In this document: positions 13,223 to 62,621 of the stretch, piece by piece
Position numbering within the stretch: position 1 is the first letter of the stretch
Layout: every line of letters begins with the position of its first letter
Source: Planotetraspora silvatica
Lineage (GTDB): Bacteria; Actinomycetota; Actinomycetes; Streptosporangiales; Streptosporangiaceae
Length of the DNA: 64,000 nucleotides
Direction of reading: 5' to 3'
NCBI RefSeq assembly: GCF_016863315.1
Contig: NZ_BOOQ01000027.1
Location: 1 to 64,000 of the forward strand
The notes under the pieces: model-generated
What the model saw: the letters and a program-made list of their open reading frames with translations, nothing else
Databases searched by the model: none
What the model was told of the DNA's origin: nothing
Program-made: the position numbers and the translations under genes

Positions 13223-13230
13223 GTCCGGCC

Positions 13231-13268
13231 GTACGGCTCCCGCGACCCGCGGGTCGCGGGAGCCGTAC
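13231..13268. terminator. 38-bp perfect palindrome, bidirectional terminator
   Basis: Bases 13231-13268 form an uninterrupted palindrome (GTACGGCTCCCGCGACCC and its exact complement around a CGCG centre). It lies between the convergent GH53 and LLM oxidoreductase genes, 9 bp after one stop and 21 bp from the other, which is where a bidirectional terminator is expected. Confidence 0.7.
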
Positions 13269-13288
13269 GCGCTCCGCATCCGGAGGCG

Positions 13289-15076: not shown

Positions 15077-15688
15077 ATGAGCAGCACTGGACGGACCGTG
15101 ATCGGCCGGCCTCGCGGGTTCGACGCCGACGCCGCACTGGACCGGGCGCTTGAGGTCTTCTGGCGTCAGGGCTACGAGGGCGCCTCGCTCAGCGACCTCA
15201 CCGAGGCCATGGGCATCAACAAGACCAGCATGTACGCCGCGTTCGGCAACAAGCGTGAGTTGTTCGGCAAGGCACTCGCCCGCTACGCCGAGGTCGACAT
15301 GGCCTACGCGCGCCAGGCCCTGGCCGCGCCGACCGCCAGGGGGGTCGCCGAGACCTTCCTGCGGGAGAACGCCAAGGCCGTGACCACACCGGACCGGCCG
15401 CCGGGGTGTCTCTCCATTCAGGGCGGCCTGTCGTGCGGGCCCGACAACGCCGAGGTGACCGCGACCCTCGCCCTGGCGCGCAAGGGCGGGGAACTCGCGA
15501 TGCGCGACCGGTTCCGCCGCGCGATCGAGGACGGTGACCTGGGCCCCGAGAACGATCCCGACGACCTCGCCCGCTACATCATGGCCGTGTCGGAGGGCCT
15601 GGCCGTCCACGCCTCCGCCGGCGCCACCCGCGAGGAACTCACCCGCGCCGTAGAAATCGCCCTCCGCGCCTTCCCCCCTTCAGCGTGA
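15077..15688 (+). CDS. TetR/AcrR-family transcriptional regulator
   Basis: A 203-residue protein. The TetR helix-turn-helix is residues about 17-60 (RALEVFWRQGYEGASLSDLTEAMGINKTSMYAAFGNKRELF), a version typical of regulators that control SDR or nitroreductase-like genes. PGCLSIQGGLSCG in the C-terminal domain is a conserved ligand-domain motif. GGAGG sits only 1 bp before the ATG, so an alternative GTG at 15098 (opening VIGRPRGFD) is possible. Its stop codon TGA is the first three bases of the TGATCATG repeat element that follows. Confidence 0.9.
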   Translation: MSSTGRTVIGRPRGFDADAALDRALEVFWRQGYEGASLSDLTEAMGINKTSMYAAFGNKRELFGKALARYAEVDMAYARQALAAPTARGVAETFLRENAKAVTTPDRPPGCLSIQGGLSCGPDNAEVTATLALARKGGELAMRDRFRRAIEDGDLGPENDPDDLARYIMAVSEGLAVHASAGATREELTRAVEIALRAFPPSA

Positions 15689-16272
15689 TCATGTCATTGG
15701 GCGTGATCATGCACAGATTCGGTGGTGGCCCACCTGACCTGCACAGACACCGTCCGTGATCATGCATACTGTCGGGAAATGCCCCACTGGCCTGCACCGA
15801 TTCCCGTCGTGATCATGCACACCTTCGGGGGAGTGCCCGCTTACCTGCGGAAAGGCCGGTCGTGATCATGCGCAGATTCGCGCGCCTGCCGGATGACCTG
15901 GCCAAGCCCCATCCGTGATCATGCGCGACAAGGCCCCGCCTGCCGTACGGCACGAGCCGAAACGGGCGCCGACACCCGGCGTGATCAGTGTGGGTTGCCC
16001 CTGTGGCCTGCACGTGCATGATCGCAGCCGGTGTACGGCCAGGCCGGGGCCTGTTCTTCTGAATGCATGCATGATCATCAAATGTGAATGCGCTGGCCGG
16101 AGGCCTTTCGCGCGAAGGTGTGCATGATCACGGAAGGCGTCTGTGCAGGCCAGGTCGGCCGCTGCCGAATCTGTGCATGATCACGGCAGGGGTTTGGGCA
16201 GGTCGGATGGGGTGCCGACGAATCTGTGCATGATCACGCACAAAGACATGATCGCGCCCAAAGACATGATCA
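15686..16272. repeat. 587-bp inverted-symmetric array of TGATCATGCA repeats with 18-bp terminal inverted repeats
   Basis: The ends are TGATCATGTCATTGGGCG (15686-15703) and its complement with one change (16255-16272), so they are 18-bp inverted repeats at 17 of 18 positions. Inside, TGATCATGC heads occur at 15704, 15757, 15810, 15863 and 15916 (exact 53-bp steps), then a degenerate TGATCA at 15982. Inverted heads TGCATGATC start at 16015, 16068, 16121, 16174 and 16227 (again exact 53-bp steps), then 16245 and 16263 (18-bp steps). Best-conserved units read TGATCATGCACAGATTCGG, about 11 variable bases, then a CTGACCTGCACAGA-like block. The 53-bp period is not a multiple of three, and no frame is maintained. 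The array fills the whole gap between two convergent genes. Function unknown. Confidence 0.9.
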
Positions 16273-16620
16273 CGGCTCGGGGGAGGCTTCCCATTCGTGG
16301 CAGGGGCGCAGCGCGTAGTGGTGGTAGATGATGATGCAGATCGCCAGGCGGGGGTCCCCCTCCGGGTCGTCGTCCGCCTGCTCCAGGCCGTCCGCCCGTT
16401 CCCAGTCGAGGTAGGCGGCGTCCACGGGGTCCTCGCCGTCCAGAAGTCCCCGGCCGTCGGAGTCGGTCAGGTCGTCCGGGTCGACGACGCCGTCGAGGTC
16501 CGGGTCCTCCAGCAGGTCCGCCGCACTCACGATCTGCCCCGCCGGGCCGCAGATGCAGTCCGGCGTGCCCTCATGGCTGATGACGTCGTCGAGCGGCATC
16601 ACGTGAACGAACTTGTTCAT
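16270..16620 (-). CDS. small acidic protein with HxxxxDCxCGP motif
   Basis: A 116-residue, strongly acidic protein. The N-terminus MNKFVHVMPLDDVISHEGTP continues as DCICGP (His16, Cys22, Cys24, Gly25, Pro26), a pattern I associate with short proteins in actinophages and actinobacterial genomes that carry a histidine and DCxCGP. The middle (about residues 35-90) is Asp-rich with repeated DPD-like patterns, and the C-terminus is hydrophobic then polar (AICIIIYHHY). GGAGGGG lies upstream of the ATG at 16620. Its TGA stop is the outer end of the repeat element, mirroring the TetR gene on the other side. Role unknown; metal binding is a guess. Confidence 0.6.
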   Translation of the reverse strand: MNKFVHVMPLDDVISHEGTPDCICGPAGQIVSAADLLEDPDLDGVVDPDDLTDSDGRGLLDGEDPVDAAYLDWERADGLEQADDDPEGDPRLAICIIIYHHYALRPCHEWEASPEP

Positions 16621-45083: not shown

Positions 45084-45745
45084 GGCAGGAACCGGACCCG
45101 CGTCCCCGGCGGCAACTTCGCCGGAGGATCGGCCGACACGTCCCAGACCCGCACGTCCGTACGGCCGAGCAGGCGCCATCCACCGGGGGACGCCGAGGGA
45201 TACACGGCGGAGTACGGCCCGGCGATCGCCACGGACCCGGGCGGCACCGACGTGCGGGGCGCGTCCAGGCGCGGCACGTGCAGCCGGGGGTCGAGTCCGA
45301 TGAGATAGGCGAATCCGGGGGCGAAGCCGAGCCAGCCCACCACGAACTCCGATCCGGCGTGCAGCGCGATCACCTCGGCGACGGTGAGGCCGGTCAGCGC
45401 GGCCACGGAGTCGAGATCGTCGCCGTCGTAGACCACGGGGATCTCGACGACCCCGGCCGCCGCGCCGGCCTCGTCCCGCGCCGCGCCGGCCTCGTCCCGC
45501 GCCGCGCCGGCCTCGTCCCGCGCCGCGCCGGCGTCCGTCACCGAGGCGAGCAGGCCGGCCAGCCTCGACTCCAGGCGTCCCTGGTCGGCGTCCGGCGCGA
45601 CGACCAGGACGGTCTCCTGGCCGGGCACGATCTCCTCCACGTGCTCGGGCCGGTCGGCTCGCAGCAGCGCGTCCAGGCGATGGGCGGCCTCGAGCGAACC
45701 CGTCTCGACCAGAAGGGCGTGCTCGCCCGCCCGCCGGATCGTCAT
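45080..45745 (-). CDS. pxpB: 5-oxoprolinase subunit B with internal AARDEAG repeat
   Basis: A 221-residue protein of the KipI/PxpB (carboxyltransferase domain) family. The N-terminal RRAGEHALLVETGS and the C-terminal GWLGFAPGFAYLIGLD with SVAIAGPYSAVYP are the family signatures. Between the two domains there is a three-fold repeat of AARDEAG (about residues 72-95) not found in typical members. It is encoded by a 21-bp tandem DNA repeat and is probably a flexible linker. ATGA overlaps couple it to both pxpA and pxpC. Confidence 0.92.
   Translation of the reverse strand: MTIRRAGEHALLVETGSLEAAHRLDALLRADRPEHVEEIVPGQETVLVVAPDADQGRLESRLAGLLASVTDAGAARDEAGAARDEAGAARDEAGAAAGVVEIPVVYDGDDLDSVAALTGLTVAEVIALHAGSEFVVGWLGFAPGFAYLIGLDPRLHVPRLDAPRTSVPPGSVAIAGPYSAVYPSASPGGWRLLGRTDVRVWDVSADPPAKLPPGTRVRFLP
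45460..45533. repeat. 21-bp tandem repeat inside pxpB
   Basis: Three perfect copies of a 21-bp unit (beginning CCGCGCCGGCCTCGTCCCGC) at 45460-45480, 45481-45501 and 45502-45522, plus a partial fourth. The unit length is a multiple of three, so the reading frame is preserved and the copies encode AARDEAG. Confidence 0.92.
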
Positions 45746-60341: not shown

Positions 60342-62621
60342 TCATCGGGGAGGCGAGGCGAGGCTCCAGACGCGGATCATGTTGTCGCGCCCGCCGCTGA
60401 CCGCGATCGGGTCTCCGGCCAGATCCCCGAAGGCGACGGACCAGATCCTGTCGTCGTGCCCCCGGAACGGAGATCCGAGAGGCCGTCCGGCTCGGAGATC
60501 CCAGACGCGGACGGTTCCGTCCTCGCCACCCGACACCGCGACGGGCGTGCCGTTCAGGTTGCCGGCGGCGAGGGCCCAGACCGGGCCGCTGTGGCCGGTG
60601 AGCGTGGGACCGGTCTGCGCCCCCGTGGAGAGGTTCCAGACCCGGACGGCCGCGTCCTGGCCGCCGGTGACGGCGTAGGTGACACCGTCGAGTTCGTAGA
60701 TCGCCAGCGCGCGCACGCCCTCGCCTCCGCCCGCGGATATGGAGCGGATCTGCCGCCTGGTGATCAGGTTCCACACGCGTACGGTGCCGTCGTCGCTCGC
60801 CGTGACGGCGACGGGCGTGCCGGTCAGCGTGCCGAGGGCGATCGACCACACGGTGGCGGTGTGGCCCGAGAGCGGGTCGCCGAATGACCGATGATTCGCG
60901 ACGTCCCAGACTCGGACCACCGTGTCCTGCCCGCCGCTGACGGCGATCGGCGTGCCACGGAGGTCTCCGGCGGCCGTGGCCTTGACGGGCCGCGTGTGGC
61001 CGGTGAGTCTGCCGAGCTCCGTGCGCGTGGTGATGTCCCAGATGCGCACGGTCGTGTCGTCGCTCGCGGTGACGGCGACCTGGGCGCTCCCGGCGGCCGC
61101 GAACGCAACGGATCGCACCCAGCCCGTGTGGCCTTCGAACGGGGCCCCGACCGGCGTCCCGTCGGTGAGGTCCCAGATTCTGGCCGTGTCGTCGTCGCTT
61201 CCCGTCAGGGCGACGAGGGTGCCGTCGATCCGGCCCAGGGCCACCGATCGGACGTCGTCGGAATGGCCCGCCAGCGGCTTGTACAAGGGGGTGCCGAAGG
61301 GCGGTGCCGTACGGGCGGCGCCGGACGGACTCGACGGGGTCGTGGTCGTCGGCGTCGTCGGCTCGCCGTCGTCTCCGCGGAGGAGGGACGGCAGGGTCAG
61401 AGCCGCCGCCGCGGCCACGAGCACGCCGCCTCCCGCCACCAGCACGCGGCGCCGGGACGGCCGGCCGGGCGGTGACGGCCGAGTGGGCGGGCCGGCGGGA
61501 GGCACGGGATTGGTGGCGTCTTCATCGGGCTCGGACGACCGCGTCTCGTGTCGCTCTGCGGGCCGCGGCTGAACCGAGTCGGCGCTCGGTGTCCGTGCCG
61601 GGTCCGGACCTTGGGCCGGGTCCGCGGGCTGTCTCTGCGCGGGGCCTTGTGCCCGGTCCGCGGGCTGCGTCTGCGCCGGGTCCGGGCCTGGTGCCGGGTC
61701 CGCGGCCTGCGTCTGCGCGGGGCCGGTGCTCCGGGCCTCGCCGGGGACCGGTAACGGGGCCGTCGGAGCAGGCCGGGGCGGGGCGGGCGCGATCAGGGTG
61801 GCGGCATGGCCGCTGTCACCCGTGAGCGTGCGGTGGAGCTCGGAGGCGGTCGGCCGGAGGCCGGCGTCCTTCGACAGGCAGGTGGCCAGCAGGGAACGAA
61901 GATCGTCCGGAACTCCGGAGAGATCGGGCTCGTGGTGCAGGATGGCGTTGAGCACGGCGGGAACCGTGTCGCCGGTGAACGCGCGGTGTCCTGTGGCCGC
62001 GTAGACCATGGTGGCCGCCCAGCTGAACACGTCCGACGCCTGGCTCACCGTCTCTCCGGTGAACTGCTCGGGCGACATGTAGCCGGGTGTGCCGACCGAG
62101 CCGGATCGGGTGACTGTGTGGTCGTTGGCCCGCGAGATGCCGAAGTCGATCACGACCGGCCCTTCGGGCCCGAGGATGACGTTGCCGGGCTTGAAGTCGC
62201 GGTGAACGACGCCGGCCCGGTGAATCGCGGCCAGGGCGCTCACGGTCGCCACCGCCAGGCGCTCCAGGCCGCCACCGGTTCGCGGGCCCGACTCTCTGAT
62301 GACCTGGTCCAGGGACGGCCCGGGGACGTACTCGCTCACGATGTACGGCCCGTCGTCGTGGAGGCCGGCGTCCAGCACCCTCGCGGTGCAGAACGGCGCG
62401 ACGCGGCGGGCGATCTCGACCTCGCGCAGGAAGCGCCTGCGCGCGTCGGAGTCATCCGCCATCCACGCGTGCAGGATCTTGATGGCGACCTTCCCCCCGG
62501 AGGGGGCGATCCCGAGATACACCACGCCCTGGCCGCCCTGGCCGAGCAGGCCTGTCAGTCGGTAACCCGCTATCTGGCCGGGTGCCCCCGGATTGAGCGG
62601 ACGGGGATCCGGCACTGGCAC
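60342..62621 (-). CDS. eukaryotic-type Ser/Thr protein kinase with C-terminal WD40 repeats
   Basis: A 759-residue protein. The kinase domain (about 18-270) has the Gly-rich loop GLLGQGGQGVVYLG, catalytic Lys48 and HRDFKPGN with Asp142 (HRD form), and DFG at 159-161. A Pro/Ala/Gln-rich linker (about 275-385), with repeated AQTQPADRAQGP-like units, precedes a single membrane segment (LVAGGGVLVAAAAALTLPSLL). The exterior part holds about seven WD40 repeats ending in dipeptides such as VWDL, RVWNL or IWDI. It is a membrane kinase with an outside WD40 sensor or binding platform; its substrate is unknown. Confidence 0.93.
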   Translation of the reverse strand: MPVPDPRPLNPGAPGQIAGYRLTGLLGQGGQGVVYLGIAPSGGKVAIKILHAWMADDSDARRRFLREVEIARRVAPFCTARVLDAGLHDDGPYIVSEYVPGPSLDQVIRESGPRTGGGLERLAVATVSALAAIHRAGVVHRDFKPGNVILGPEGPVVIDFGISRANDHTVTRSGSVGTPGYMSPEQFTGETVSQASDVFSWAATMVYAATGHRAFTGDTVPAVLNAILHHEPDLSGVPDDLRSLLATCLSKDAGLRPTASELHRTLTGDSGHAATLIAPAPPRPAPTAPLPVPGEARSTGPAQTQAADPAPGPDPAQTQPADRAQGPAQRQPADPAQGPDPARTPSADSVQPRPAERHETRSSEPDEDATNPVPPAGPPTRPSPPGRPSRRRVLVAGGGVLVAAAAALTLPSLLRGDDGEPTTPTTTTPSSPSGAARTAPPFGTPLYKPLAGHSDDVRSVALGRIDGTLVALTGSDDDTARIWDLTDGTPVGAPFEGHTGWVRSVAFAAAGSAQVAVTASDDTTVRIWDITTRTELGRLTGHTRPVKATAAGDLRGTPIAVSGGQDTVVRVWDVANHRSFGDPLSGHTATVWSIALGTLTGTPVAVTASDDGTVRVWNLITRRQIRSISAGGGEGVRALAIYELDGVTYAVTGGQDAAVRVWNLSTGAQTGPTLTGHSGPVWALAAGNLNGTPVAVSGGEDGTVRVWDLRAGRPLGSPFRGHDDRIWSVAFGDLAGDPIAVSGGRDNMIRVWSLASPPR

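What the first reader, a model, noticed from the sequence alone, without database searches (positions are those of the whole stretch)
15686..16272. Inverted-symmetric 53-bp repeat array with matching 18-bp ends
Seen directly: about 14 copies of TGATCATG-type heads (or their complement) in 587 bp. In the left half they read rightwards at exact 53-bp steps (15704, 15757, 15810, 15863, 15916); in the right half they read leftwards at exact 53-bp steps (16015, 16068, 16121, 16174, 16227). Both ends carry an extra 18-bp unit, TGATCATGTC(A/T)TTGGGCG, inverted and matching at 17 of 18 positions. The best-conserved heads extend to TGATCATGCACAGATTCGG, with a second CTGACCTGCACAGA-like block about 30 bp later. 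The symmetry suggests a palindromic mobile or expansion element, a nucleoid-protein platform, or an RNA with very long imperfect pairing. I know of no named family with this layout.
Basis: seen in the sequence. Interest (0 to 1): 0.88.

Follow-up and report, generated by a model that had tools for sequence, protein, structure and literature searches.

The report
Phased 53-bp repeat arrays ending genes
At an estimated two hundred or so places in this soil bacterium's genome, often where two genes run into each other, there are mirror-image rows of the same short DNA word spaced 53 letters (five turns of the double helix) apart; evolution guards the word and the spacing but not the letters between, so an unidentified protein probably docks there, perhaps to stop transcription at gene ends.

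Summary
Observation confirmed and extended. The array (15686-16272) is one of a family in Planotetraspora: 702 head matches in this genome, 30 arrays in a 1.34-Mb sample (roughly 190 if extrapolated), and counts far above background in five of five genus genomes plus one other family genome, G105. Arrays lie between genes and favour convergent pairs (13/136 versus 17/683 gaps, p=4e-4); of 33 nearby gene ends, 9 use the outermost head's TGA as stop codon. Between species heads hardly change while the rest of the unit changes faster than flanking DNA, and the 53-bp step persists where flanking DNA gains indels. Mini-ORF coding is not supported; arm pairing has weak, sporadic support. Whole arrays are copied elsewhere in the genome: 13 loci in G105, one clear pair here; so they look transposon-derived. 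The tip CGTGATCATGCA recurs in other actinomycete families. Best reading: mobile inverted-repeat elements turned into phased protein-docking arrays that end or insulate transcription. The trans factor is unknown; termination is inferred, not shown. I found no published description in the searches listed.

The parts
15077..15688 (+). TetR-family regulator gene; its stop codon TGA (15686-15688) is the TGA of the outermost left 18-bp unit
   Evidence: Pfam TetR_N E=9.7e-12
15686..15703 (+). left terminal 18-bp unit TGATCATGTCATTGGGCG; absent from P. mira, and a different short version in P. phitsanulokensis
15704..15915 (+). left arm: four full 53-bp units (heads 15704, 15757, 15810, 15863)
15916..15933 (+). 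fifth left head, without a full unit body
15934..16016 (.). centre between the arms; conserved with P. mira and, in its left part, with P. phitsanulokensis; centres of other arrays differ in length and sequence
16017..16024 (-). innermost right head (degenerate, CGATCATG)
16025..16236 (-). right arm: four full 53-bp units (heads starting at 16236, 16183, 16130, 16077 on the minus strand)
16237..16272 (-). two right terminal 18-bp units; the outer one (16255-16272) matches the left 18-mer at 17 of 18 positions
16270..16620 (-). convergent ORF (116 aa, no Pfam match at E<=0.001); its stop codon is the TGA of the outermost right 18-bp unit
13223..13288 (.). comparison site: gap between two convergent genes holding a GC-rich hairpin (-45.9 kcal/mol) here and in P. 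mira (-44.8), where P. phitsanulokensis has a three-head array instead (best local hairpin -15.3)

Best explanation
The array is one copy of a dispersed, transposon-derived (MITE-like) element family whose ends, CGTGATCATGCA plus a lineage-specific tail, have been iterated into inward-facing arms of sites spaced 53 bp (five helical turns) apart. A sequence-specific DNA-binding protein (unknown) is proposed to bind the heads on one face of the helix, helped by the second block at about three turns (positions 31-38). The loaded arms, pointing inward from the ends of flanking genes, are proposed to stop or insulate transcription arriving from either side, able to stand in for a hairpin terminator. 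SHOWN: dispersed family, inward arms, spacing kept despite sequence turnover, conserved heads, preference for convergent gene ends, stop-codon overlap, whole-array copies at different loci in G105 and in this genome. INFERRED: protein binding, one-face loading, terminator or insulator role, transposition as the dispersal route.
For: Family: 702 head matches and 402 exact 53-53 triplets in this genome, controls 0; triplets 386, 47, 315, 407 in G001-G004 and 133 in G105. Heads: in 35 orthologous units (own vs P. mira) columns 0-8 have 0-0.03 substitutions per site and variable columns 0.163, against 0.047 in intergenic DNA. Spacing: intergenic DNA shows 148 indels per 798 substitutions; across 48 head-to-head intervals with 402 substitutions (35 vs P. 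mira, 13 vs P. kaengkrachanensis; both heads conserved) 43 kept their length, 3 changed by 1 bp and 2 by a whole unit, against about 74 indels expected, or about 16 against 1 for the P. mira pairs if only the flanking substitution rate is counted. Same-strand spacing 53:367, 52:21, 54:2, all other values up to 70 bp together 17, although same-arm units are almost as different (0.415 identity at variable columns) as units of different arrays (0.373). The five strongest column dependencies are between adjacent columns. Gene ends: convergent enrichment p=4e-4 (gaps of 40-900 bp) and p=0.015 in G105; 9 of 33 gene ends exactly on the head's TGA; hairpins in the first 90 nt weaker beside arrays (p=2e-4; G105 p=0.035); hairpin in two species versus array in a third at one site. 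Mobility: 13 aligned copies in G105; a 366-bp, 85.6% identical array pair in this genome with no matching flanks.
Against: No expression data exist here, so termination is not shown. Over the whole gap the best hairpin of convergent array gaps does not differ significantly from array-free ones (-22.2 vs -26.8, p=0.30), in G105 tandem gaps with arrays are no weaker, and some centres keep a strong hairpin (C3:436161 at -27.3). By my gene caller 3 of 18 symmetric arrays lie between divergent genes, and some halves bracket a whole gene, neither expected of a pure terminator. Arm-to-arm distance shows no helical phase (n=36, p about 0.3 at 10.5 bp). In other families (G373, G579) the step varies between arrays. 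Copying from other 53-bp units can add substitutions without indels, which weakens the spacing test. Some non-adjacent columns also depend on each other (40/51, 24/31). No consistent target-site duplication and no transposase were found. No binding protein was identified.
Confidence: 0.46

Rival explanations
1. Purely selfish MITE-like repeats: the arrays spread and expand by their own ends and gather between convergent genes because that is where insertion does least harm; heads stay conserved only because a transposase and repeated copying keep re-supplying them.
For: Whole-array copies in G105 and one clear pair (85.6% over 366 bp) plus a weaker one (75% over 393 bp) in this genome; arm-to-arm copying of outer units; patchy distribution (G432 289 copies, its congener G388 2); conserved tip with lineage-specific tail, as in transposon ends.
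Against: Most sampled arrays of this genome share only unit-level similarity and unit bodies are strongly diverged, yet heads and spacing are kept; sites are shared between own and P. mira (3 of 3 arrays on C27). A dead repeat should lose its 53-bp step.
Confidence: 0.25
2. Chromosome-structuring platform: phased sites load a nucleoid or bridging protein that insulates or loops domains; gene ends are simply the free space where such platforms can sit.
For: Phased spacing and conserved heads; presence also between divergent genes and around whole genes; several hundred heads in the genome.
Against: Strong bias to convergent gene ends and an array in place of a terminator-like hairpin are not predicted.
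Confidence: 0.16
3. RNA device: transcripts fold the two arms into a very long hairpin that ends or protects the mRNA.
For: Window array folds with z=-14.7; outer arms of real pairs more complementary than mismatched pairs (p=0.028); opposite-arm units slightly more alike than units of different arrays (0.399 vs 0.373, p=0.014), same-rank ones most (p=0.0025).
Against: The outer excess comes from 7 of 22 arrays; inner units show none overall (p=0.44). The strongest dependencies are between adjacent columns. One-sided arrays keep the same 53-bp step, which pairing does not need.
Confidence: 0.08
4. Chain of coupled 16-codon mini-ORFs (TGA-TC-ATG stop/start junctions), like mycobacterial MIRU.
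For: ATG at unit position 5 is in frame with the next unit's TGA at 53.
Against: In-frame stops are not depleted: 8 in 89 units against 10.2 expected from column shuffles (P=0.28).
Confidence: 0.02

Closest known systems
REP / BIME / REPIN extragenic repeats with RAYT transposases
   Same: Dispersed extragenic repeats in high copy, often as inverted dimers, with a supposed role in transcription termination or mRNA stability (passages of PMC3733652)
   Different: Units are not small GTAG- or CGTC-tagged hairpins; arms are direct repeats at a 53-bp step; RAYT family PF01797 was found in only 1 of 14 element-bearing genomes searched
MITEs (non-autonomous inverted-repeat elements)
   Same: A few hundred bp, inverted ends, whole copies at different loci, no coding capacity seen
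   Different: Ends are iterated into long arms; no consistent target-site duplication; heads and spacing look constrained
Fold-back transposons (long inverted ends built of tandem subrepeats; recalled, from no call)
   Same: Overall layout: inverted ends made of direct subrepeats around a variable centre
   Different: Known to me from eukaryotes; exact helical step and stop-codon overlap have no counterpart that I recall
MIRU of mycobacteria (recalled, from no call)
   Same: Intergenic direct repeats of about 50-100 bp touching stop codons
   Different: Inverted arms here; mini-ORF not protected

Membership tests
REP/REPIN with RAYT | Associated tyrosine transposase (PF01797) in the genome | tested here: not met
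   1 of 14 element-bearing genomes searched (G001 only); absent from the window's genome
REP/REPIN with RAYT | Short palindromic unit tagged GTAG or CGTC | tested here: not met
   Unit consensus TGATCATGCACAGGTTCGG...; definition from passages of PMC3733652
MITE | Similar whole copies with inverted ends at loci with unrelated flanks | tested here: met
   13 copies in G105, core identity 0.75-0.90; one clear pair in this genome. The window's own array had no such copy among the stretches compared
MITE | Target-site duplication | tested here: not met
   No consistent direct repeat at the edges of 13 G105 copies; best z 3.9 among 1352 offset/length combinations tried
MITE | Parent transposase with matching ends | tested here: inconclusive
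   None recognised by eye among the bracketed genes read; whole genomes were not scanned for it
Intrinsic terminator | GC-rich hairpin followed by a T run | tested here: not met
   One weak 5-pair match in 15500-16500 (0.3 expected); unit bodies of 10 arrays fold weakly (median -11.2)
MIRU | Small ORF kept open across units | tested here: not met
   8 stops versus 10.2 expected
Known Rfam RNA family | Match above gathering score | tested here: not met
   0 matches in the window
CRISPR array | Near-identical repeats in one direction | tested here: not met
   Repeats degenerate and in inverted arms
CRISPR array | Cas genes beside it | not tested
   Only three neighbouring genes were scanned: TetR, SDR and one without a match; no Cas search was made

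The most novel reading that the evidence does not exclude
A bacterial gene-boundary system of a new kind: a trans-acting DNA-binding protein, acquired patchily across actinomycetes, reads CGTGATCATGCA plus a lineage-specific tail and loads onto helically phased, inward-facing arrays made from its own former transposon ends, serving as genome-wide, two-sided transcription terminators or insulators in place of hairpins.
Probability: 0.28. Interest if true: 0.92.

Novelty: new variant of a known kind. Interest (0 to 1): 0.74.

Why it matters
If the reading holds, a genus has put a phased, multi-site protein platform built from mobile inverted-repeat ends at the ends of many of its genes, beside or in place of hairpin terminators. 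It would be a clean case of transposon ends turned into gene boundaries in bacteria, with a sharp test (the 53-bp step), and it opens a search for a missing DNA-binding factor shared by scattered actinomycetes. Even if the arrays are only selfish, a rigid helical spacing kept through heavy sequence change needs an explanation.

Tried and rejected
Mini-ORF chain: rejected by stop counts. RAYT/REPIN: rejected. General selection for arm pairing: not supported, though 7 of 22 arrays show strongly matching outer arms and 3 of 22 inner arms that rank first. Arm-to-arm helical phase: none. Strict 'sense 3'-UTR element' idea: weakened, because symmetric arrays also occur between tandem and divergent genes; from that table I counted by hand 33 of 46 arms facing a gene 3' end (binomial p=0.0045). 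Alternation of one-sided arrays along contig C2 looked suggestive and was not pursued. A strand polarity that the G373 listing seemed to show was an effect of listing order: minus-strand copies lie in the same stretches. Rho-type C-rich sites: unit bodies only mildly C over G (35.7 vs 30.8%). Arrays on phages, plasmids or viral contigs: no match to the window array in the phage and plasmid collections and no tandem CGTGATCATGCA pair in viral contigs. The window search against 60 relatives also gave weak hits in G028 and G033; the G028 one is a short match to the centre without heads; the G033 one was not read. Literature: searches showed no description of these repeats in the rows listed; only passages of PMC3733652 and PMC4679880 were read, the rest as search listings. 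The library holds open-licence papers only, and long result lists were shown in part.

Limits: gene calls come from my own simple codon-score caller, not a curated annotation. Gaps counted for enrichment are those of 40-900 bp, and 'array' there means three or more loosely matched heads, some of which are opposite-strand shadows of the palindromic TGATCA; a count with phased heads gives 32 arrays in the same 1.343 Mb. Hits outside the family were found by searching with CGTGATCATGMA, so the shared 12-mer is partly ascertained. The 22-bp GC-rich tandem copies in G371 look different and are not counted as the same element; those of G058 and G111 were not studied. The spacing counts include orthologous loci of several species. 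In one search units with more than 2 gaps or more than 22 differences were dropped, leaving 35; only intervals with both heads conserved count. In one search only symmetric arrays with three or more phased heads per arm were used (22).

Full report
OBSERVATION. Five plus-strand heads at 15704-15916 and five minus-strand heads (the innermost degenerate) mirror each other at exact 53-bp steps, with one 18-bp unit at the left end and two at the right. Pattern counts are far above shuffles. Both flanking convergent genes (TetR, +; unassigned ORF, -) stop on the TGA of the outermost 18-bp units.

FAMILY. The window lies in contig C27 of an unnamed 8.66-Mb genome. TGATCATGCACAGATTCGG with up to 3 mismatches: 702 places in this genome and 346, 230, 616 and 679 in G001-G004; among 341 family genomes searched the only other high count is G105 with 289, the rest 0-8. 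Exact 53-53 triplets: 402 here, control 0; 386, 47, 315, 407 in G001-G004 and 133 in G105; 0 in G074, G075, G432, G373 and G579. In contigs C2, C3 and C27 (1.343 Mb) there are 30 arrays with four or more heads, or 32 with three or more phased heads: roughly 190-210 genome-wide by extrapolation.

ANATOMY. Consensus of 89 exact units: TGATCATGCACAGGTTCGG at 0-18, YGACCTGC at 31-38, CG before the next head; the rest variable. Of 28 arrays with three or more scored units in C2, C3 and the window, 18 are symmetric (+++---): ten between convergent genes, five between tandem genes, three between divergent genes by my caller; ten are one-sided. Centres differ in length and sequence. Convergent gaps are enriched: 13 of 136 hold an array against 17 of 683 other gaps (p=4e-4); in G105 6 of 21 against 8 of 102 (p=0.015). 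Of 33 gene ends within 80 bp of an outermost phased head, 9 have their stop codon exactly on the head's TGA, 23 end 12-48 bp before it and one 31 bp inside; the window's two ends count there among the 23, because their stops lie on the 18-bp units outside the phased heads.

SELECTION. Own versus P. mira (most C27 flanks 93-98% identical): columns 0-8 change at 0-0.03 per site, all columns classed as conserved 0.042, variable columns 0.163; intergenic 0.047, third codon positions 0.061. Indels in non-array intergenic DNA run at 148 per 798 substitutions, yet 48 head-to-head intervals with 402 substitutions show 43 unchanged lengths, three one-base changes and two whole-unit changes. At the intergenic ratio 402 substitutions would bring about 74 indels. 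Not all substitutions need be point mutations, since copying from other 53-bp units changes letters without changing length; counting only the flanking substitution rate for the P. mira pairs, about 16 indels are expected against one seen (Poisson 2e-6). In this genome TGATCATG pairs 54-68 bp apart number 5 and those 38-52 bp apart 32, 28 of them exactly 52. Units of one arm are only slightly more alike than units of different arrays (0.415 versus 0.373, p=9e-7), so the step is not explained by recent tandem copying alone. The five strongest column dependencies are between adjacent positions; weaker ones between distant columns exist. In-frame stops are as frequent as expected, so the apparent chain of 16-codon ORFs is not protected.

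GENE ENDS. Convergent gene ends beside arrays have weaker hairpins in their first 90 nt (median -17.2 in 26 ends against -23.8 in 230, p=2e-4); in G105 over all gene 3' ends -14.2 (20) against -17.9 (95), p=0.035. Against this, the best hairpin over the whole convergent gap is not significantly different (p=0.30), and G105 tandem gaps with arrays show no deficit. At window 13223-13288 a -45.9 kcal/mol hairpin separates convergent genes here, -44.8 in P. mira, while P. phitsanulokensis has a three-head array with best local hairpin -15.3. At another site P. thailandica carries an array where this genome has a transporter-like gene (named by eye). The inference is that arrays can stand in for hairpin terminators; direct evidence is lacking.

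GROWTH AND MOBILITY. Between species arrays gain and lose units, in the cases aligned mostly outer ones. In the window's array the outermost 18-mers of both ends match each other but not those of relatives. Same-rank units of opposite arms are more alike than shuffled ones (p=0.0025), and in 7 of 22 arrays, the window's included, outer arms are more complementary than about 98% of mismatched arms; inner units show no overall excess, although three arrays rank first there. This points to occasional inverted copying between arms, not to a constant need for pairing. In G105, 22 similar unit bodies mark at least 13 copies of an array of about 260 bp (207-323 between outer heads; two lack the first unit, one has a diverged left unit), similar through the centre (core identity 0.75-0.90), on both strands of one contig and with flanks that do not align, sharp at CGTGATCATGCA. 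In this genome the arrays at C2:62900 and C6:13025 are 85.6% identical over 366 bp including the centre, with no matching flanks beyond 13 bp, and a second pair (C2:27033 and C1:60165) 75% over 393 bp. No consistent target-site duplication was found.

WIDER CLASS. CGTGATCATGMA is amplified in a few other actinomycete genomes (G373 289, G432 289, G579 100, G371 35, G491 29, G058 26, G414 24, G111 21; others 12 or fewer; 296 genomes). In G373, G579, G491 and G414 it heads inward-facing units with a genus-specific tail: ATCCCGCCACCC in G373, CGCCAGCGCA in G579, CGTTCGCCC in G491, GTTGATGT in G414, sometimes on stop codons. Steps there differ (30-52 bp in G373), so the rigid 53 was seen only in Planotetraspora and G105. 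Tandem CGTGATCATGCA 27-56 bp apart occurs in 2 of 396 phylum genomes, this one and G373; G432 and G579 were not in that draw.

VERDICT. A dispersed, transposon-like inverted-repeat family whose iterated ends are kept as helically phased sites at gene ends. Protein docking is the most economical reading of conserved heads plus conserved spacing; a terminator or insulator role is the most likely use but is inferred. The trans factor is the missing piece.

Noticed in passing
window 13223-13288: GC-rich near-perfect palindrome (-45.9 kcal/mol) between convergent genes; the same site holds a 53-bp-type array in P. phitsanulokensis.
   Followed up: yes
L068 3036-4371, L288 2306-3286, L289 2357-3259, L286 1994-3092 (G579): The two arms of an array bracket one whole minus-strand gene (cobD-like and GntR-like by eye, and two others) instead of a short centre.
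   Followed up: partly
L084 2342-4127 (P. mira): Arms 1.8 kb apart enclose DNA of mixed GC3 with a small excisionase-like helix-turn-helix ORF (named from its sequence by eye, no family search).
   Followed up: no
L356, L360, L362, L364, L368 (G105), left flanks of the element: 5 of 13 dispersed copies have a similar hairpin-like stretch of the type GGAAGAAGGTGTGGGCCCCTTCC just outside the left end, perhaps a shared terminator used as target.
   Followed up: no
L265 6514-6770, L266 7600-8500, L277 6610-7120 (G373): Array centres in G373 share a second repeat with inverted CAGAATGCTGGGTT / CAGCATTCTG parts.
   Followed up: no
L239, L244, L249 (G371): 22-bp GC-rich tandem repeats CGTGATCATGCAGCCCCTCGGC, which look unlike the other arrays.
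   Followed up: no
window 45458-45532 and 61599-61726: Other tandem repeats (21-bp exact, about 42-bp) listed by Tandem Repeats Finder.
   Followed up: no
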